From Pikeienuella piscinae (GTDB lineage Bacteria > Pseudomonadota > Alphaproteobacteria > Rhodobacterales > Rhodobacteraceae), in the NCBI RefSeq assembly GCF_011044155.1, contig NZ_CP049056.1, positions 2,852,001 to 2,916,000 on the forward strand: a stretch of 64,000 bases of DNA, read 5' to 3'. The notes below the pieces were generated by a model that was not told the origin of the DNA, made no database searches, and worked only from the letters and a program-made list of their open reading frames with translations. Both the position numbers and the translations under genes were made by a program. This document shows positions 30,789 to 44,860 of the stretch, one piece after another; position 1 is the first letter of the stretch; every line of letters begins with the position of its first letter.

Positions 30789-31430
30789 ATGGCGCTGATC
30801 GCGGAAGACCTGGCGGTGGAGCGGGGCGGACGGCTTGCGCTGGCCGCGCCCGATTTCCGCATCGAGGCGGGGGAGGCCGCTCTCGTCGCCGGCCCGAACG
30901 GCGCGGGAAAATCGACGCTCCTGCGCGCGCTCGCCGGGCTCTCGCCGCTCAAGCGCGGCCGCGTCATGTTCGAGGGCGCGGCGGATGTCGCCGCTCATGT
31001 CGCCTATGCCGGGCATCTCGACGCGGTGAAGCCGGCGCTTTCGGTGCGCGCCAATCTCCGCGCCTGGGCTGCGATCTATCGCTCTGGCGGTGATGTGGAC
31101 GACGCGCTGGCGCGGCTCGGGCTCGCCCATATTGCGGACGAGCCGGCGGCGTTCTGCTCCGCCGGGCAGAAACGCCGGCTCGGTCTCGCGCGGCTCCTGG
31201 TCGCGGGGCGGCGGATATGGCTGCTGGACGAGCCGACCGTGTCGCTCGACGCGGCCTCTGTCGCGGCCCTCTCCGAGCGGATCGCGGCGCATTGCCGGGC
31301 GGGCGGGATCGCGGTCGTCGCGACGCATGTCGAGTTCGGTCTTCCGAAGGGGCCGCGGATCGAGTTGACGGCGCCCGAAGTTGGGGCCGACGCGGTGGGC
31401 GATCCGTTCCTAGCGGGCGCCTGGGCGTGA
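30789..31430 (+). CDS. ccmA: heme exporter ATP-binding protein CcmA
   Basis: A 213-aa ABC ATPase. Walker A is GPNGAGKSTL, the signature is CSAGQKRRLGLARLL, and Walker B is IWLLDEP. CcmA with CcmB and CcmC loads heme on CcmE for cytochrome c maturation (System I). The gene starts the ccm cluster, divergent from acnA, and its stop overlaps the GTG start of ccmB. Confidence 0.94.
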   Translation: MALIAEDLAVERGGRLALAAPDFRIEAGEAALVAGPNGAGKSTLLRALAGLSPLKRGRVMFEGAADVAAHVAYAGHLDAVKPALSVRANLRAWAAIYRSGGDVDDALARLGLAHIADEPAAFCSAGQKRRLGLARLLVAGRRIWLLDEPTVSLDAASVAALSERIAAHCRAGGIAVVATHVEFGLPKGPRIELTAPEVGADAVGDPFLAGAWA

Positions 31431-32083
31431 GGGCGCTTTTCAGCCGCGATCTCGCGCTCGCCTTCAGGATCGGCGGCGGCGGGCTGATGGCGCTCGGCTT
31501 CTTCGCCATGGCCTCGCTCCTGATCCCGATCGGGGTCGGCGGCGCGGAGGAGGCGCTCACGCGGATCGCCGGCGGCGCGCTCTGGGTCTCGGCGCTGCTC
31601 GCCTGCCTTCTTTCGCTCGACCGGCTCTTTCAGGCGGATTACGAGGACGGCTCGCTCGATCTCATCATGCTGTCGCCGACGCCGCCCGAATTGTCGGCGC
31701 TGGCGAAGGCGGCGGCGCATTGGCTCACGACCGGTGCGCCGCTCGTCGCGCTCTCGCCGCTGCTCGGGCTGATGCTGAATCTTGCGCCTTCGGCCTATGG
31801 CGCATTGGTCCTCTCGCTGCTGATCGGCACGCCGGCGCTCTCTCTGATCGGGGCGGTGGGCGCGGCGCTGACCGTGGGGGTGCGGCGCGGCGGGCTGCTG
31901 CTCTCGCTTCTGGTGCTGCCGCTCTATCTGCCGACGATGGTGCTCGGCGCGCGGGCGGTCGAGCGGGCGTCCACCGGGCTTGACCCCAGCGCGGCGCTTT
32001 ACCTTTCCGGCGCGGTGACGCTGGTCGCGCTCGCCGCCGCGCCCTTCGCCGCCGCGGCCGCGCTGCGGGTCAATCTGAGATAG
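31427..32083 (+). CDS. ccmB: heme exporter membrane protein CcmB
   Basis: A 218-aa integral membrane protein with about six hydrophobic segments. FQADYEDGSLDLIMLSP is the conserved CcmB cytoplasmic loop that meets CcmA. It starts with GTG in a GTGA overlap with the ccmA stop; the longer frame from 31217 lies inside ccmA. In most relatives ccmC follows immediately; here two unrelated genes intervene. Confidence 0.93.
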   Translation: MRALFSRDLALAFRIGGGGLMALGFFAMASLLIPIGVGGAEEALTRIAGGALWVSALLACLLSLDRLFQADYEDGSLDLIMLSPTPPELSALAKAAAHWLTTGAPLVALSPLLGLMLNLAPSAYGALVLSLLIGTPALSLIGAVGAALTVGVRRGGLLLSLLVLPLYLPTMVLGARAVERASTGLDPSAALYLSGAVTLVALAAAPFAAAAALRVNLR

Positions 32084-32092
32084 GGAAACGTC

Positions 32093-33172
32093 ATGGCCGG
32101 AATCATCGTGAAAGAAGTGAAGGCGCGGGGCGTCGTGGTTCCGATGCGCCGGCCGCTGGTCACCGGGGGCGGGTCAGTGACGGAGGCGCCGCTGGCGCTG
32201 ATCGATCTGCACGCCTCGGACGGAAGCATCGGGCGGGCCTATCTCTTCGGATATGGGGTCTTCGCGCTCCGGGCGCTGGTCGCGGCGGTCGAGGATCTCG
32301 GCGAGACGCTGGTCGGCCTCCCGCTCGCGCCGCGCGATCTTCAGCGCGGGATGCGGGCGCGGCTCAGGCTGGCCAGTCCGCTCGGCTCGATGGGGCAGGC
32401 GCTTTCGGGGCTCGACATGGCGGCCTGGGACGGGTTCGCCAAGACCCTCGGTCTGCCGCTCCACGCCGCGCTCGGCGCTGCCGGGGCGCCGATCCGCGCC
32501 TATAACTCTAACGGGCTGGGGCTGATCGGCGCGGCGGCGGTTCCGGCGGAGGCGCGGGCGCTCGACGCGGGCTTCGGCGCGCTCAAGCTTCGTCTCGGCT
32601 ATGCGACGCTGGAGGAGGACCTCGCCGCGATCACGGCCTGCCGGGAGGCGGTGGGGCCCGAAAGCTTCGTGATGACCGATTACAACCAGTCGCTTTCGCC
32701 AGCCGAGGCGGCGCGGCGCGCCCGCGCCATCGGCGATCAGGTGTTCTGGATCGAGGAGCCGGTGCGGGCGGACGATGTCGCGGGCCACGCGCAGGCGCGC
32801 GATGCGGCGGCGACGCATATCATGACCGGGGAGAACGCCTGGGGGCCGCATGACATCGCGCGGCTGATCGATGGCGGCGCGGCGGATCTCCTGATGCCGG
32901 ACGCCGGCAAGATCTGGGGCGTGACCGGTTGGCTGGAGGCGGCGGCGCTGTGCGGGGCGGCGGGGATTCCGGTCTCCAGCCACCTTTACCCGGAGGTCAG
33001 CGTGCATCTTCTGGCGGCGACGCCGACGGCGGACTGGCTCGAATATGTCGACTGGGCGGAGCCGATCCTCGCGGAGCCGCTCGTCATCGCTTCGGGCATG
33101 GCGCGGCCGCCGGCGCGGCCCGGAATCGGGATCGAGTGGGACGAGGCGGCGGTGGCGCGTTATCTGCGCTGA
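32093..33172 (+). CDS. enolase superfamily enzyme (mandelate racemase/muconate lactonizing type)
   Basis: A 359-aa enzyme of the enolase superfamily. The capping domain is followed by a barrel with ALKLRLGYA (general base region), VMTDYNQS and WIEEP and MTGEN (three metal ligands), LLMPDAGKIWG and SSHLYPEVS (the Asp-His dyad), and LEYVDW. This pattern is that of the mandelate racemase subgroup, which abstracts a proton alpha to a carboxylate. The substrate is not identifiable. It begins nine bases after ccmB and so is probably cotranscribed with ccmAB, though it is functionally unrelated. Confidence 0.85.
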   Translation: MAGIIVKEVKARGVVVPMRRPLVTGGGSVTEAPLALIDLHASDGSIGRAYLFGYGVFALRALVAAVEDLGETLVGLPLAPRDLQRGMRARLRLASPLGSMGQALSGLDMAAWDGFAKTLGLPLHAALGAAGAPIRAYNSNGLGLIGAAAVPAEARALDAGFGALKLRLGYATLEEDLAAITACREAVGPESFVMTDYNQSLSPAEAARRARAIGDQVFWIEEPVRADDVAGHAQARDAAATHIMTGENAWGPHDIARLIDGGAADLLMPDAGKIWGVTGWLEAAALCGAAGIPVSSHLYPEVSVHLLAATPTADWLEYVDWAEPILAEPLVIASGMARPPARPGIGIEWDEAAVARYLR

Positions 33173-33175
33173 AGC

Positions 33176-34561
33176 TCAGCGCGGGCGCATGTCGCGGGCG
33201 ACGCGGAAGCCGTAATCGTCGTTCCGCCAGTTGATGTCGTTCGAATAGCGCATCGCCGGACGCACGGCCCAGGGCCGGTCCTTGAACGAGCCGCCCTTCA
33301 GGACGTGGCGATGGGCCATCGGGTCGTCACTTTCCCAGATGCGGGCCGAGCCGTCCGTCGGGTTGTTCTCGACATCGTCGCGATAGACGTCCTCGACCCA
33401 TTCGGCGAGGTTGCCGGCCATGTCGAAGAGTCCGAAACGGTTGGGCGGGAAGGACGCGACCGGGGCCGCATCCACCCATTCATCCGCGCCTTCGGCGGCG
33501 CCGATGCAGCAGACTTCGCGCCCCATATTGGCCTTTGAGCGGTCCCATGTCTCACCCCACGCGTAGGCGGTTTGGGTTCCCGCCCTTGCGGCGTATTCCC
33601 ATTCCGCCTCGGTCGGCAGGCGGTAGGGCTCGCCGGGGACCATTTCGTTGAGCCAGCCGATGAAGGTCTGCGCGTCCTCCCATGACGCGCCCATCGCGGG
33701 CATGCCGTCTTTCGGGAGGCCGTCGTCGTGGAGTTTCGCGCAGGCCCCGTCGTCCACGCAGGCGGCGTAGGCCACCCATGTCGTTTCGGTCCTCGATATG
33801 GCGAAGCGGGGGACCGTGACCTGGCGTTGCGGGCCCTCCTGGTCGAGCCGGTCGGACTCGTCTTCGGGCGAACCCATCAGGAAGGCGCCGGCCGGGATCG
33901 CGATCATCTCGGGGCAGCGGTCGCACTCGGTGAAACTGGCGAGATCGGGGGTCCCGGCCGGGTCTTCGGGGCGGGTCAGGCGCTCGTAGCCGACGCCGCA
34001 GGCGGCGGCGAGAAGAAGAAGCGCGAGAATGATCATCGCCGGGCGGCGCAGATCGCGGCGGGGCCGGGCCTCGGCGCGGCGCGTCGCCCCGGCGCCGAGA
34101 GCAGCGCGAATCGCATCCTCAAGGCGGCCGATCTCGTCGCGGAACCCTTCATGGGTAAGACGGACGAACTGGCGCCGCGCGAGCGGGCGCAGGTCGTCCG
34201 GCAGATCGGCGGGCGCGGGGGGCGCGGCGCCGTCGAGGAGGATCGGGATGGTCACCGTTCCTTCGCGCCCGAGCGCGGAGGCGATTTCAATACGGACGAA
34301 GTCCTTCGCGTCGTCGAGGCGGCGCGCGCCGCCCGGCGATCGCAGCGACAGCCATTCCGGGCCGATCAGCGCGAGAAAAACGTCGCAAACCCCGACCTGC
34401 CCCGCCAGCACCTCGATGAAATCCTGCCCCGGAGCGATCTTTTCGACATCCATGAAGATGCGCTCTTCGGGGAACGCGGCCGAGAGCGTGTCATAGAGCC
34501 GCGCGGCCGCCCATTGGCTGTCCGCCCTTCGGTAGGAGATGAAGATCTTGCCGCCCGCCAT
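33176..34561 (-). CDS. TIR domain - membrane segment - FGE-sulfatase domain fusion
   Basis: A 461-aa fusion. Residues 1-150 are a TIR domain: KIFISYRRADSQWAAARLYD, then RIFMDVEKIAPGQDF and VFLALIGPEWL. One hydrophobic segment follows at about residues 182-200 (AMIILALLLLAAACGVGYE). Residues about 220-460 are a formylglycine-generating-enzyme-type domain: FLMGSPEDE, YRLPTEAEWEYAARAG, NRFGLFDMAGNLAEWVED and DYGFRVARD. The start at MAGGKIF follows the TIR fold; a frame to 34684 is unsupported. TIR domains bind or cleave NAD in many bacterial defence and signalling proteins; FGE-like domains also act as ligand binders. It lies on the opposite strand within the ccm cluster. Confidence 0.84.
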   Translation of the reverse strand: MAGGKIFISYRRADSQWAAARLYDTLSAAFPEERIFMDVEKIAPGQDFIEVLAGQVGVCDVFLALIGPEWLSLRSPGGARRLDDAKDFVRIEIASALGREGTVTIPILLDGAAPPAPADLPDDLRPLARRQFVRLTHEGFRDEIGRLEDAIRAALGAGATRRAEARPRRDLRRPAMIILALLLLAAACGVGYERLTRPEDPAGTPDLASFTECDRCPEMIAIPAGAFLMGSPEDESDRLDQEGPQRQVTVPRFAISRTETTWVAYAACVDDGACAKLHDDGLPKDGMPAMGASWEDAQTFIGWLNEMVPGEPYRLPTEAEWEYAARAGTQTAYAWGETWDRSKANMGREVCCIGAAEGADEWVDAAPVASFPPNRFGLFDMAGNLAEWVEDVYRDDVENNPTDGSARIWESDDPMAHRHVLKGGSFKDRPWAVRPAMRYSNDINWRNDDYGFRVARDMRPR

Positions 34562-34904
34562 CGCCGGTCTCCCTTCGGCGGGCAGTCTATCAGGTGAAGG
34601 GCGATCAGTCTCTCCGATCCGGCGACGCGCGGGCTGGCTTATCGCGCGCCCGGAGTGCGTTATCGCACGCGATAAGGGGGTCAAGATATTGAAATATATA
34701 CAAACTTGGAAAGTTCATGCTTTGTTAACGCGCATCTGGCTGTCCGCGGCGGGGTAAGAGGCGCGGCCTCGGGCCGGTCTCCTTCGCCGGGATGCGGGGC
34801 GATTCCCGGCGAGGGAGCGGCGGCCGGACGCGCGGGTTTCGCGGCCCGCGCCCCTCAACACGGTGGCGCGACTGCGACGGGAGGGGCGTTGCCGGACGGA
34901 ACCG
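34562..34904. promoter_or_regulatory. divergent region upstream of ccmC with palindromic site
   Basis: A 343-base gap between the TIR-FGE gene (minus) and ccmC (plus). It contains the palindrome at 34660-34675 and an AT-rich stretch at 34685-34735 that contrasts with its surroundings and is a good place for a promoter restarting ccmC-ccmD-ccmG transcription after the insertion. No gene is seen. Confidence 0.45.
34660..34675. promoter_or_regulatory. operator-like palindrome TTATCGC-AC-GCGATAA
   Basis: A perfect seven-base inverted repeat with a two-base spacer. A same-orientation half site, TTATCGCG, lies at 34639-34646, 21 bases (two helical turns) upstream. This arrangement suggests a dimeric regulator binding between the TIR-FGE gene and ccmC; the regulator is unknown. 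Confidence 0.45.
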
Positions 34905-35657
34905 ATGGCGATACTGCTCAAACCCATGTCGATCTGGCGCTATGCGAACCCGGCCGAATTCATGCGCGTCTCCGGCGCCCTTTTGCCGTGGTGCGCGGGG
35001 CTCGGCGCGCTGGCGCTTTGCGTCGGGGTGGTCTGGGGGCTTTTCCTGACGCCGACCGACGCGACGCAGGGGGAGAGCGCGCGTATCATCTATATCCACG
35101 TTCCGGCGGCGATGCTGGCGATCAACATCTATTTCATGATGGCCATCGCCTCCGTCATCGGGCTGGTGCGCCGGCATCATGTCTCCTTCCTGGCGGCGAA
35201 GGCGGCGGCGCCGATCGGCATGGCGATGACGGCGCTGGCGTTGATCACCGGCGCGCTCTGGGGCGCGCCGACCTGGGGGACGTGGTGGGTCTGGGACCCG
35301 AAGCTGACCTCGGTCCTGATCATGTTCTTCTTCTATCTCGGCTATATCGCGCTCTGGAACTCCATCGACGACCCGGAGAAGGCGGCGGATCTGACCGCGG
35401 TTCTCTGCCTTGTCGGCGTCGTCTTCGCGGTGATGTCGCGCTACGCGGTGGAAATCTTCGACGGGCGGACGCTTCATCAGCCGGCCTCGCTCTCGCTGGA
35501 TGCGGAGGAGAATGTCGCCGGGGTGTTCTATCGGCCTCTGCTCTTCTCCATCGCCGGGTTCTATCTGGCCTTCATCGCGCTTCTGCTGGCGCGGACGCGG
35601 ACCGAGATCCGGCTGCGCCGCGCGCGGGCGCTGGCCTTGCAGGCGGCGCGCGACTGA
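34905..35657 (+). CDS. ccmC: heme lyase/exporter subunit CcmC
   Basis: A 250-aa membrane protein with six hydrophobic segments. GTWWVWDPKLTS is the tryptophan-rich heme-handling motif on the periplasmic side, and conserved His residues occur in YIHVPAAML and GRTLHQPAS. CcmC passes heme to CcmE. The start is placed at 34905; an internal ATG at 34926 is possible. ccmD follows directly. Confidence 0.94.
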   Translation: MAILLKPMSIWRYANPAEFMRVSGALLPWCAGLGALALCVGVVWGLFLTPTDATQGESARIIYIHVPAAMLAINIYFMMAIASVIGLVRRHHVSFLAAKAAAPIGMAMTALALITGALWGAPTWGTWWVWDPKLTSVLIMFFFYLGYIALWNSIDDPEKAADLTAVLCLVGVVFAVMSRYAVEIFDGRTLHQPASLSLDAEENVAGVFYRPLLFSIAGFYLAFIALLLARTRTEIRLRRARALALQAARD

Positions 35658-36401: not shown

Positions 36402-37157
36402 TCAGCCGCAGGCCGGGCAATCCCTGCGTTTCTCCACATCGAAGGTCCGGGTCTCGCCGTCGAGCGCGTTGTAGATCAGCACGCGGTCCTTCAGCGTCCG
36501 GCCGGCCAGCGCGACATCCTTGATCGTCTCGACGGCGATCAGGGACCCCATGACCCCGGTGAGCGGGCCGAGGACGCCGCCGGCGGCGCAGGAGACCGCC
36601 TGCCCCTCGCGCGGGGGCTCGGGGTAGAGACATTCATAGCAGGGCCCGCCTTCCCACGGTTTGAAGAGGGAGATCTGCCCCTCCCACTGCGTCAGCGCCG
36701 CCGAGATCAGAGTCGTCGAGCGCGCGACGCAGGCGCGGTTGAGGATGTAGCGCGTCTCGATATTGTCGGTGCCGTCGATCACCAGCCGGTAGGGCTTGAT
36801 GAGTTCTTCGACGTTGTCCGCCATCACCCGCGTTTCGTGAAGGCGCACGAATACGTGCGGGTTGAGCGCGGCGATGGCGTCCTTCGCGCTTAGGGTCTTC
36901 ATTTCGCCAACGCGCCGGGTGGTGTGGATGACCTGGCGCTGCAGGTTGGAGAGCGAGACCACGTCGTCATCGACGATGCCGATCGTGCCCACGCCGGCCG
37001 CCGCCAGGTAGATCAGCGCCGGCGAGCCGAGCCCGCCGGCCCCCACCACGAGCACTTTCGCGCCGCGGAGCCGCCGCTGGCCGGGGCCGCCGATCTCGCG
37101 CATGATGATGTGACGGGCGTAGCGCTCCAGCTCCCCTGTCGTGAATGAATCGCCCAT
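36402..37157 (-). CDS. moeB: MoeB/ThiF family adenylyltransferase
   Basis: A 251-aa E1-like enzyme. VVGAGGLGSP binds ATP, DDDVVSLSNLQRQVIH and DGTDNIETRYILN are family motifs, and CYEC with the C-terminal CPAC bind zinc. It adenylates the C-terminal Gly-Gly of MoaD or ThiS before sulfur transfer. There is no rhodanese extension. The cysteine synthase gene is next in line upstream, so a sulfur-carrier role is consistent, but MoeB and ThiF cannot be separated from this alone. Confidence 0.88.
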   Translation of the reverse strand: MGDSFTTGELERYARHIIMREIGGPGQRRLRGAKVLVVGAGGLGSPALIYLAAAGVGTIGIVDDDVVSLSNLQRQVIHTTRRVGEMKTLSAKDAIAALNPHVFVRLHETRVMADNVEELIKPYRLVIDGTDNIETRYILNRACVARSTTLISAALTQWEGQISLFKPWEGGPCYECLYPEPPREGQAVSCAAGGVLGPLTGVMGSLIAVETIKDVALAGRTLKDRVLIYNALDGETRTFDVEKRRDCPACG

Positions 37158-42264: not shown

Positions 42265-43515
42265 TTATCGACAGCCGGCGGCGCGCTCCGCCGCCGCAAT
42301 CCGTTCGATCTCGCCGATGTCCGCGGGCGTCATCGCCGCCCGAGCGCCCTCCATGTCGCGCGAGCACCCGTTCGCGCCGAAGGCGGCGCGTCCGCGCGCG
42401 CTGGTGAAGCAATAGCCGTAGCTGTCCCATATCGCGTTTCGCGCATGCCAGAGCGCGTCGCAGCCCTGCGGCGCGGCGTCCGCGCTGGCCGCGCGCGGCG
42501 TTTCGGCCTTCGCGCCGGCGGCGCGGCAGCAACGGATCCAGTTCGAATGGGCCCACCCCTCGCGCCCGTCGCGCAAACGCACCCGGGCCCAGGCGCCGTC
42601 GCGGTCGAGAACCTCCAGTTCGGTTCCCGGCGCCATCTTGTCGATCCGGCCGCCGCGCCCCGCCGGCGCGCTGCGCAGCGCCAGGAAATTGTCGCCCTGG
42701 GGATCGAGCCCGTCCACATAATGCAGCGAAGCTGGCGCCGGCGCTTGCGGCGTGTCGCCCGTCGCCGACTGGTCGGGCGGGGCGGCGAGGTACACCTCCC
42801 GCAGTAAAGAGGAATTCTCCCACGGCGTTTGTCGCCCGCTGGTCTCGCGGACAACGTCGGCGCGCACATGGCGCATGACTTCGTGAATGTCGTCGTCCCG
42901 CGTTCCGATATGCCGGATCAGCGCGGCGGTGAAGGGGCTGTTGCCGCCGGCGCCGTCCGTCGCGACATCGTTGGGCGCGGTCGAGAAGGCGATGAAGGAG
43001 CCGACCCCGGCCTCCAGCCGCGCGAGGCCTCGAGACGCCGCCCCGGCGGAGCGGCTCGCCGTCGTGTCGACGAACGGGTTGTTGCGGCAGGCGTCGAGGA
43101 TCACCACCCGCGTGCGCGCCCGCAGCTCCATCGTTCGCAGCACCGCCTTGAGCTTGACCGAGCTTGACTGTAGCGCATCGGCGCCGGCGAACCGCGCATC
43201 GACCGGGATCAGGTAGTTCTCTCCACCCAATTGCGCGCCGTGGCCCGAATAATAGAACAGCGCGACATCGTCCCGCGCGACCCGCCTCGCGAACGTCTCG
43301 ACCTGTTCGAGCATCTCGATCCGGGTGAGATCGTAGCCGTCGATCACGTCATATGCGAGGCCGCGAAGGCGGTCGGCCATGTCGCGCGCGTCCTTCGCCG
43401 CGTTGCGAAGCGAGCCGCTCTCCGCATAGGCGCCGTTGCCGATGACGAGCGCCACGTTCTTCGCCATCGCGGCCGGCGCGAACAGAACGAGGATGAGGAC
43501 CAGAATGCGCAGCAT
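42265..43515 (-). CDS. secreted caspase-like peptidase with SH3 and YARHG domains
   Basis: A 416-aa protein. A signal peptide (cleavage after AAMA, residue 18) is followed by a caspase-type p20 domain with the catalytic dyad His92 in YYSGHGAQ and Cys143 in ILDACRNNPF. An SH3-like domain (about 265-325; LALRSAPAGRGG and DGREGWAHSNWI) and a C-terminal YARHG-type domain rich in Cys (CDALWHARNAIWDSYGYCF) come after. Bacterial caspase homologues cleave after Arg/Lys. The protein is probably periplasmic or secreted. The next gene upstream is a nucleotide cyclase. Confidence 0.88.
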   Translation of the reverse strand: MLRILVLILVLFAPAAMAKNVALVIGNGAYAESGSLRNAAKDARDMADRLRGLAYDVIDGYDLTRIEMLEQVETFARRVARDDVALFYYSGHGAQLGGENYLIPVDARFAGADALQSSSVKLKAVLRTMELRARTRVVILDACRNNPFVDTTASRSAGAASRGLARLEAGVGSFIAFSTAPNDVATDGAGGNSPFTAALIRHIGTRDDDIHEVMRHVRADVVRETSGRQTPWENSSLLREVYLAAPPDQSATGDTPQAPAPASLHYVDGLDPQGDNFLALRSAPAGRGGRIDKMAPGTELEVLDRDGAWARVRLRDGREGWAHSNWIRCCRAAGAKAETPRAASADAAPQGCDALWHARNAIWDSYGYCFTSARGRAAFGANGCSRDMEGARAAMTPADIGEIERIAAAERAAGCR

Positions 43516-43576: not shown

Positions 43577-44860
43577 TCACGACCGGTCGAGCCGCCCCTC
43601 CAGTAGCCAGGTTCGCATCCTGCCCTTGCCCTTCACCTCGATCTCGCCCCGCGCGGCGAAGGCGAAATCGGCGGCGAGCAGGTCGTGGACCGCTTCGGTC
43701 ACCTGGATCTCGCCCGCCGGGGCGGTCGATTCCATCCGGCTCGCGACGTTCACGCTGTCGCCCCAGAGGTCGTAGACGAATTTGGAGCGGCCGATGACGC
43801 CCGCGACCACCGGGCCGACATGGACCCCGGCGCGCATCGAGATGTCGACGTCGCGCGCCTTCGCCACCTCGTCGAGTCGGACGCGCATGGCGAGCGCGGC
43901 GTCGAGCGCATGGGCGGGATCGGCGCTGCGCTCCGTCGGCAGGCCCGCGGCCATCATGTAGGCGTCGCCGATGGTCTTGATCTTCTCCAGATCGAACTCG
44001 TCGGCGATGCGGTCGAAACCAGTGAAGATGTCGTCGAGGATCGCCACGAGCGCCTCGGGCGTCATGGTGGCGGAGAGCGGGGTGAAGTTCACAATATCGG
44101 CGAATACAACGGTCGCTTCGTCATGACTGTCGGCGATCAGCGTCTCGCCGGCGCGCATCCGCCCGGCGATGGAGGGCGGCAGCACGCTGAGGAGGAGACG
44201 TTCGGTCAGCGCCTTCTCGTCGGCGAGATCGCGCGCGCCGGCCCACGCCTCGCGCCGCGCGCGCTCGATGGAGTAGGCGACCCAGGACATCACCGCGAGC
44301 GTGGCGTAAAGGATGAAGAGCGGCGCGTAGGGCACCTCCATCCAGAAGGCGACGACGGGCGTGAAGGCGAGGGCGAAGATCAGGCCGAGCGGCGCCGCGA
44401 AGCGAAAGAGGAGCCCGAGCCCGACCAGCATGATCGTCAGGGTGAAATTGAAGAGCGTCGCCGACCGCTCGATCCAGAGCCCGTAATTGCCGCTGCCGAA
44501 CATGAAGATCGCGAACAGCCCGGCCGCGAACAGCCCGACGACGATCTGGCCGTTGCGGACCGCCGCCGGCAGCGTCGTGATCCAGAGCGCAAGGAGCAGC
44601 ACGACGATGTTGGCCGCGCGAACCGCGAGGCCGGCGAGGAACACGTCATAATGCGCCCAGCCCTCGACGATCATTCCGTAGAATTCCAGCGCGCCCTGCA
44701 GCAGGGCGAACAGGATCATCACCAGAATGACGACGCGGAGCGGCCCGACGGCGCGGCGGTTGTTCTCCTGGATGAAGGCGCTCTCCAGCGCCGGATCGCG
44801 AAAGGCGAGGGTGAACCGGTTGAAGCCGCGATCCGCCGCCGGGCTCAGCGCCTCGGTCAC
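43577..44860 (-). CDS. membrane class III adenylate/guanylate cyclase
   Basis: A 427-aa protein. The first 220 residues hold about six membrane segments; a class III cyclase domain fills the rest, with VVFADIVNFTPLSA (first metal Asp), KIKTIGDAYMMAAGLP (second metal Asp and substrate region), MRAGVHVGPVVAGVIGRS and DLWGDSVNVASRME. This is the MASE-like/cyanobacterial Cya type. It makes cAMP (or cGMP). hemF is one base upstream on the same strand. Confidence 0.9.
   Translation of the reverse strand: MTEALSPAADRGFNRFTLAFRDPALESAFIQENNRRAVGPLRVVILVMILFALLQGALEFYGMIVEGWAHYDVFLAGLAVRAANIVVLLLALWITTLPAAVRNGQIVVGLFAAGLFAIFMFGSGNYGLWIERSATLFNFTLTIMLVGLGLLFRFAAPLGLIFALAFTPVVAFWMEVPYAPLFILYATLAVMSWVAYSIERARREAWAGARDLADEKALTERLLLSVLPPSIAGRMRAGETLIADSHDEATVVFADIVNFTPLSATMTPEALVAILDDIFTGFDRIADEFDLEKIKTIGDAYMMAAGLPTERSADPAHALDAALAMRVRLDEVAKARDVDISMRAGVHVGPVVAGVIGRSKFVYDLWGDSVNVASRMESTAPAGEIQVTEAVHDLLAADFAFAARGEIEVKGKGRMRTWLLEGRLDRS

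What the first reader, a model, noticed from the sequence alone, without database searches (positions are those of the whole stretch)
33176..34561. TIR-transmembrane-FGE-sulfatase fusion
TIR domains often act as NAD-consuming effectors in defence systems, and FGE-like domains are frequent partners of caspase and kinase domains in signalling or conflict modules. With TIR on one side and FGE on the other side of a membrane segment, the protein could couple an outside ligand to an inside effector.
Basis: partly seen in the sequence, partly recalled or inferred. Interest (0 to 1): 0.55.

Follow-up and report, generated by a model that had tools for sequence, protein, structure and literature searches.

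The report
Membrane TIR protein with lectin-like sensor
A single bacterial gene joins a probably NAD-cutting TIR domain inside the cell, through one membrane segment, to a lectin-like domain outside the membrane, so it looks like a small receptor; it is one fixed example of a known, mix-and-match group of bacterial sensor-effector proteins.

Summary
Window 33176-34561 (-) encodes 461 aa: TIR_2 at 6-144, one membrane helix at about 174-192 and an FGE-sulfatase-type domain at 216-456. The TIR keeps the glutamate aligned with the SARM1 catalytic one (E92). The FGE-fold domain lacks the CxxxxC pair of true formylglycine-generating enzymes; the same genome has a separate gene with that pair. 'Sulfatase' is therefore misleading; a C-type-lectin-like binding role is more likely.
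All 3 other genomes of the genus carry the gene, one with an internal stop. Related genera fuse this kind of C-terminal domain to caspase or TIR domains. In one sister genus (G020) its ends resemble diversity-generating-retroelement (DGR) variable regions. The window gene shows no such sign.
Best reading: a fixed single-pass receptor, periplasmic lectin-like sensor plus cytoplasmic TIR NADase. Activity, topology and ligand are inferred. No defence operon was recognised among the neighbours scanned, so an anti-phage role is unproven. The domain pairing is already in print; this is a new variant of a known kind.

The parts
33176..34561 (-). whole gene, 461 aa, TIR - membrane helix - FGE-fold domain
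34130..34546 (-). TIR_2 domain, residues 6-144; putative catalytic E92 in DFVRIE
   Evidence: Pfam; phmmer to SARM1; position
33986..34042 (-). predicted membrane helix, residues 174-192, positive inside at the N side
   Evidence: hydropathy and charge
33194..33916 (-). FGE-sulfatase-type (C-type-lectin-like) domain, residues 216-456, no CxxxxC after GGSF
   Evidence: Pfam; PvdO 5hha E 3.4e-32; cysteine positions
33179..33298 (-). residues 422-461, counterpart of the DGR variable region of other FGE-fold proteins; here without DGR signature

Best explanation
A single-pass inner-membrane receptor. The N-terminal TIR domain is in the cytoplasm and the C-terminal FGE-fold domain, which has lost or never had formylglycine-generating chemistry, is in the periplasm and binds a ligand there. 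Binding or clustering brings TIR domains together and switches on NAD+ cleavage, which stops growth or makes a signal. It is a fixed, germline-like member of a group in which C-terminal FGE-fold sensors are joined to exchangeable N-terminal effectors (caspase, TIR). Shown: domains, order, hydrophobic segment with charge bias, conserved Glu, missing FGE cysteines, lack of DGR signs. Inferred: topology, NADase activity, ligand, trigger, outcome.
For: Pfam domains. E92 aligned with the Glu of SARM1 in KDFVRIE/KDWVHKE (that this SARM1 Glu is the catalytic one is recalled). [WF]VxxE kept in 10 of 12 TIR-FGE genes checked. Charge bias +5/-2 around the helix. No Cys after GGSF; GGSWLCATSYC in the other FGE gene of the same genome; CxxxxC in 3 of 71 rows that have a GGS motif, of 95 collected. 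Partners in those 95 rows: caspase in 20, TIR in 13 rows (12 genes, one G003 gene appears twice). Several caspase-FGE relatives begin with a signal-peptide-like stretch, so their FGE domain would also be outside. One related TIR protein carries OpuAC, a solute-binding domain, in the same C-terminal place (G263). TIR and FGE parts are 78% and 80% identical to G001, the linker and helix 56%, with third codon positions most changed, so both domains are under constraint.
Against: No defence operon was recognised. Several TIR-FGE relatives in G020 show no membrane helix with the same cut-off (L018, L059, L067, L070), so the FGE domain need not be outside in general, and published work treats FGS sensors as intracellular invader sensors (PMC8195603 abstract and passages). 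G003 has an internal TGA, so the gene may be dispensable there. W is F in the TIR motif. The structure model was too poor to use (mean pLDDT 48.5).
Confidence: 0.5

Rival explanations
1. The FGE-fold domain is an enzyme of the PvdO type in the periplasm and the TIR domain only scaffolds or regulates it.
For: Closest solved structure is PvdO (5hha, E 3.4e-32), which shares the CxxCPEM start; NCBIfam's best match is the PvdO model, at 155 bits against a cut-off of 500.
Against: Score far below the curated PvdO cut-off; the same domain is swapped between TIR and caspase partners, which fits a binding part better; no siderophore genes among the 10 window proteins scanned, the gene itself included.
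Confidence: 0.12
2. A non-immune envelope or cytochrome-c-maturation stress sensor: the gene lies divergent to ccmC and reads out the periplasm.
For: It sits between ccmB plus an enolase-type gene and ccmC in the window, and next to ccmC in G003.
Against: In G001 and G002 the gene is elsewhere and ccmC has other neighbours; in G005 and G020 ccmA-B-C are contiguous without it.
Confidence: 0.12
3. The TIR domain works by protein-protein assembly only, without NAD+ cleavage.
For: F in place of W in the WxxxE-like motif; many TIRs are scaffolds (PMC7075850, passages).
Against: Glu kept in 4 of 4 genes of the genus and 10 of 12 TIR-FGE genes.
Confidence: 0.18
4. An orphan remnant without present function.
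For: One TGA in the G003 copy; different gene neighbourhoods within the genus.
Against: Intact in the window and G001 (G002 cut by a contig end) with 76% identity and mostly third-position change.
Confidence: 0.05

Closest known systems
FGS/CLec antigen-sensor proteins of bacterial conflict systems (PMC7159879, PMC8195603, PMC10907252; cyanobacterial DGR proteins PMC7517822)
   Same: C-terminal FGE-fold domain behind an N-terminal effector, TIR among them; some with membrane helices or signal peptides
   Different: no NTPase, MoxR, vWA or reverse transcriptase partner found; one polypeptide; variable region not diversified
Metacaspase-FGE-sulfatase fusions (PMC3501461)
   Same: same C-terminal domain and layout; 33 of 671 metacaspases in that paper
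   Different: effector is TIR, on the other side of the membrane by prediction
Animal Toll-like and IL-1 receptors
   Same: outside binding domain, one helix, cytoplasmic TIR
   Different: order reversed (TIR at the N end), no LRR or Ig, no homology of the outer part tested
SARM1 and bacterial TIR NADases
   Same: TIR fold and aligned Glu
   Different: single-pass membrane protein with a lectin-like outer domain; activity unknown
PvdO (5hha)
   Same: FGE fold with CxxCPEM start
   Different: below the PvdO cut-off; fused to TIR

Membership tests
Formylglycine-generating enzyme (SUMF1) | FGE fold | tested here: met
   Pfam FGE-sulfatase 2.4e-50
Formylglycine-generating enzyme (SUMF1) | catalytic cysteine pair CxxxxC after GGS (pair recalled) | tested here: not met
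   no Cys after GGSF; the other FGE gene of the genome has GGSWLCATSYC
TIR NADase | TIR fold | tested here: met
   TIR_2 5.5e-13
TIR NADase | catalytic Glu | tested here: met
   E92 aligned with SARM1
TIR NADase | NAD+ cleavage | not testable with these tools
   needs an assay
DGR variable protein | reverse transcriptase in the genome | tested here: not met
   0 RVT_1 matches in G000
DGR variable protein | template or second copy of the variable region | tested here: not met
   last 245 nt match only themselves in G000
DGR variable protein | variation in first and second rather than third codon positions | tested here: not met
   window against G001, residues 422-461: 0.225, 0.15, 0.375
NTPase or ternary conflict system (FGS type) | C-terminal FGS domain behind an effector | tested here: met
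NTPase or ternary conflict system (FGS type) | MoxR, vWA or STAND NTPase partner nearby | tested here: inconclusive
   none in 9 neighbours by Pfam or in the PADLOC table for 43 neighbours, of which 25 of 30 families were shown; partners elsewhere in the genome not searched
Thoeris ThsB | ThsB-type TIR over its length with ThsA next door | tested here: not met
   ThsB model matched only over residues 5-71, 37.4 bits; no ThsA shown among neighbours
Type III Thoeris ThcB4 | score over the curated cut-off | tested here: not met
   43.4 bits against 220
PvdO | score over the curated cut-off | tested here: not met
   155.2 against 500

The most novel reading that the evidence does not exclude
A hard-wired bacterial counterpart of a Toll-like receptor: a periplasmic lectin-like sensor that directly drives a cytoplasmic NADase across the inner membrane, and a fixed relative of a receptor pool that a sister genus (G020) appears to diversify, or to have diversified, by retroelement hypermutation.
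Probability: 0.2. Interest if true: 0.72.

Novelty: new variant of a known kind. Interest (0 to 1): 0.4.

Why it matters
Bacterial TIR effectors studied so far are mostly switched on from inside the cell (recalled). A one-gene receptor with its sensor outside would show a direct route from an outside signal to NAD+ loss, and with only one gene it is easy to test. The fixed gene here and the DGR-like paralogues in G020 would allow a comparison of germline-like and hypermutated sensors within one bacterial family.

Tried and rejected
DGR target: rejected for the window gene. In G020 and G011 one RT each was found; both are RT-TIR fusions with a QGAPTSP/QGACTSP stretch that I read, from recall, as retron-like rather than DGR. 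No A-rich template was among the 9 pattern matches in G020, so the DGR reading of G020 rests on sequence signature alone; the first pattern had wrong spacing and found nothing. In the statistic the third codon position is the least changed in the variable region (0.113, against 0.225 and 0.167) in 6 sequences, but with all 8 the contrast is weaker (0.18 against 0.254 and 0.195); by count of columns that are not uniform in the 6 sequences (19, 14, 15 for positions 1, 2, 3) there is little contrast.

Cyclase partner: in G001 a cyclase-domain gene lies about 50 bp downstream (Guanylate_cyc 1.2e-06; spacing), but its homologue in the window genome is far away and it matches no PADLOC model; taken as a chance neighbour.

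Defence neighbours: the PADLOC scan of 43 neighbours showed E1-E2 (the ThiF gene 36402-37157), mad3 (the CcmA ABC protein), caspase (42265-43515) and PycC (43577-44860); 5 of its 30 families were not shown. I read the first two as generic matches, and no operon with the TIR gene is seen.

Structure: AlphaFold2 with 10 rows gave mean pLDDT 48.5; not used, no fold search made. Viral contigs: no relative of the TIR part. Genome contigs gave 10 loci at 30-37% identity, matched on the FGE side.

Full report
What is there. Window 33176-34561 on the minus strand encodes 461 aa. Pfam finds TIR_2 (6-144, E 5.5e-13) and FGE-sulfatase (216-456, E 2.4e-50), both over the curated cut-offs. Between them lies one strongly hydrophobic stretch, 174-192, with net charge +5 before and -2 after it, which by the positive-inside rule (recalled) puts the TIR in the cytoplasm and the FGE-fold domain in the periplasm. 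The finding as observed is confirmed.

Is the TIR competent? phmmer aligns it with SARM1 over residues 6-139 (E 1.7e-06), with KDFVRIEIASAL against KDWVHKEIVTAL. The Glu is E92; that it is the catalytic one in SARM1 is recalled. It is present in all 4 genes of the genus, and [WF]VxxE is present in 10 of 12 TIR-FGE genes checked. The two without it are L057:4298-6886 and L078.

Is the other half a sulfatase-modifying enzyme? Probably not. After GGSF there is no cysteine, while the second FGE gene of the same genome (G000:C1:2942582-2943469) reads GGSWLCATSYC. Of 95 collected FGE rows, 71 have a GGS motif and 3 of these the CxxxxC pair. The best solved relative is PvdO (5hha, 3.4e-32), but the PvdO model's cut-off is far from met (155 against 500 bits). 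Papers on bacterial conflict systems describe this domain as a C-type-lectin-like sensor or effector (PMC7159879, passages; PMC8195603, passages; PMC10907252, abstract and sections 11, in part, and 14).

Relatives. In 61 genomes (the window's own included) 25 have some match at E 0.001. The three other genomes of the genus have the gene: G001 76%, G002 76% but cut by a contig end, G003 58% with one TGA. In other genera of the family the FGE part is common and in two of them much expanded, in G020 and G011. In the ORFs scanned, the partners are caspase (Peptidase_C14), TIR_2 and PG_binding_1. In 289 genomes of the class, 4 (the window's own and three more) have a TIR of this type at 1e-12; none of the three other hits carries FGE by Pfam. 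One of them carries OpuAC, a solute-binding domain, in the same place, with a hydrophobic stretch between the two that I saw by eye only. In the same 289 genomes 34 have the FGE part at 1e-35. Over all 95 FGE rows that I held, local profiles find caspase in 20 and TIR in 13 rows, which are 12 genes. This set is not a random sample. Several TIR-FGE genes of G020 have no helix at the cut-off used, and others have six or seven.

Diversification. FGE-fold tails are targets of diversity-generating retroelements in other bacteria. The tails of G020 paralogues share scaffold DNA while codons between vary, often with a fixed third base. In six of them the changed fraction by codon position is 0.225, 0.167, 0.113 in the tail, against 0.292, 0.225, 0.296 upstream; with all eight the contrast is weaker. 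No template and no DGR-type reverse transcriptase was found there, so this is suggestive only. The window gene shows none of it: no RT in the genome, no second copy, and ordinary third-position divergence from G001.

Context. In the window the gene lies between ccmB plus an enolase-type gene and ccmC. G003 keeps ccmC beside it; G001 and G002 have it elsewhere; G005 and G020 have ccmA-B-C together. The neighbours are otherwise metabolic or housekeeping genes (some named by eye from their sequence), and I saw no defence operon. A caspase-like gene with a signal-peptide-like start and a cyclase gene lie 8-9 kb away, with housekeeping genes between.

Mechanism. I take it as a single-pass receptor whose periplasmic lectin-like domain controls a cytoplasmic TIR NADase. 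Domains, order and key residues are shown; topology, activity, ligand and outcome are inferred.

Novelty. TIR-like domains with a C-terminal C-type-lectin-type domain are in print for cyanobacterial DGR proteins (PMC7517822, passages), and TIR effectors on STAND-type DGR targets (PMC10907252, section 11); membrane or secreted forms are also described. Metacaspase-FGE fusions are in print (PMC3501461, passages). My searches for TIR together with FGE, SUMF1 or lectin-fold terms gave these works and otherwise papers that look unrelated from their listings; that covers open-licence papers only. A search for PvdO terms found nothing. I therefore call it a new variant of a known kind: fixed, single-pass and free-standing.

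Noticed in passing
window 42265-43515 (-) and 43577-44860 (-): A caspase-like gene (Peptidase_C14, SH3_3, YARHG) with a signal-peptide-like start lies 61 bp after a membrane class III cyclase-type gene that matches the PADLOC PycC model at 2.5e-17; same strand, possibly one operon.
   Followed up: partly
window 34660-34675: Perfect inverted repeat TTATCGCACGCGATAA between the TIR gene and ccmC; 1 match allowing 2 mismatches against 0.28 expected by chance; no exact copy in the three same-genus loci.
   Followed up: partly
L049, L054, L058, L059, L067, L069 (G020): Tails of TIR- and caspase-FGE paralogues look like DGR variable regions (third codon base often fixed), yet no template or DGR reverse transcriptase was found in the assembly.
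   Followed up: partly
L061 724-2313 (-) and L062 1345-2878 (+): Reverse transcriptase fused to a C-terminal TIR-like region (by eye) in G020 and G011, retron-like by its motif (recalled).
   Followed up: no
L084 277-1953 (-) (G263): TIR_2 followed by OpuAC solute-binding domain in one protein: another candidate membrane TIR receptor.
   Followed up: no
L078 6265-9321 (-) (G011): 1018-aa protein with TIR-like start, an ATPase-like middle (by eye), a hydrophobic stretch and an FGE-fold end.
   Followed up: no
window 30789-35657: The ccm genes are split: ccmA-ccmB, then an enolase-type gene and the TIR gene, then ccmC; contiguous in G005 and G020.
   Followed up: partly
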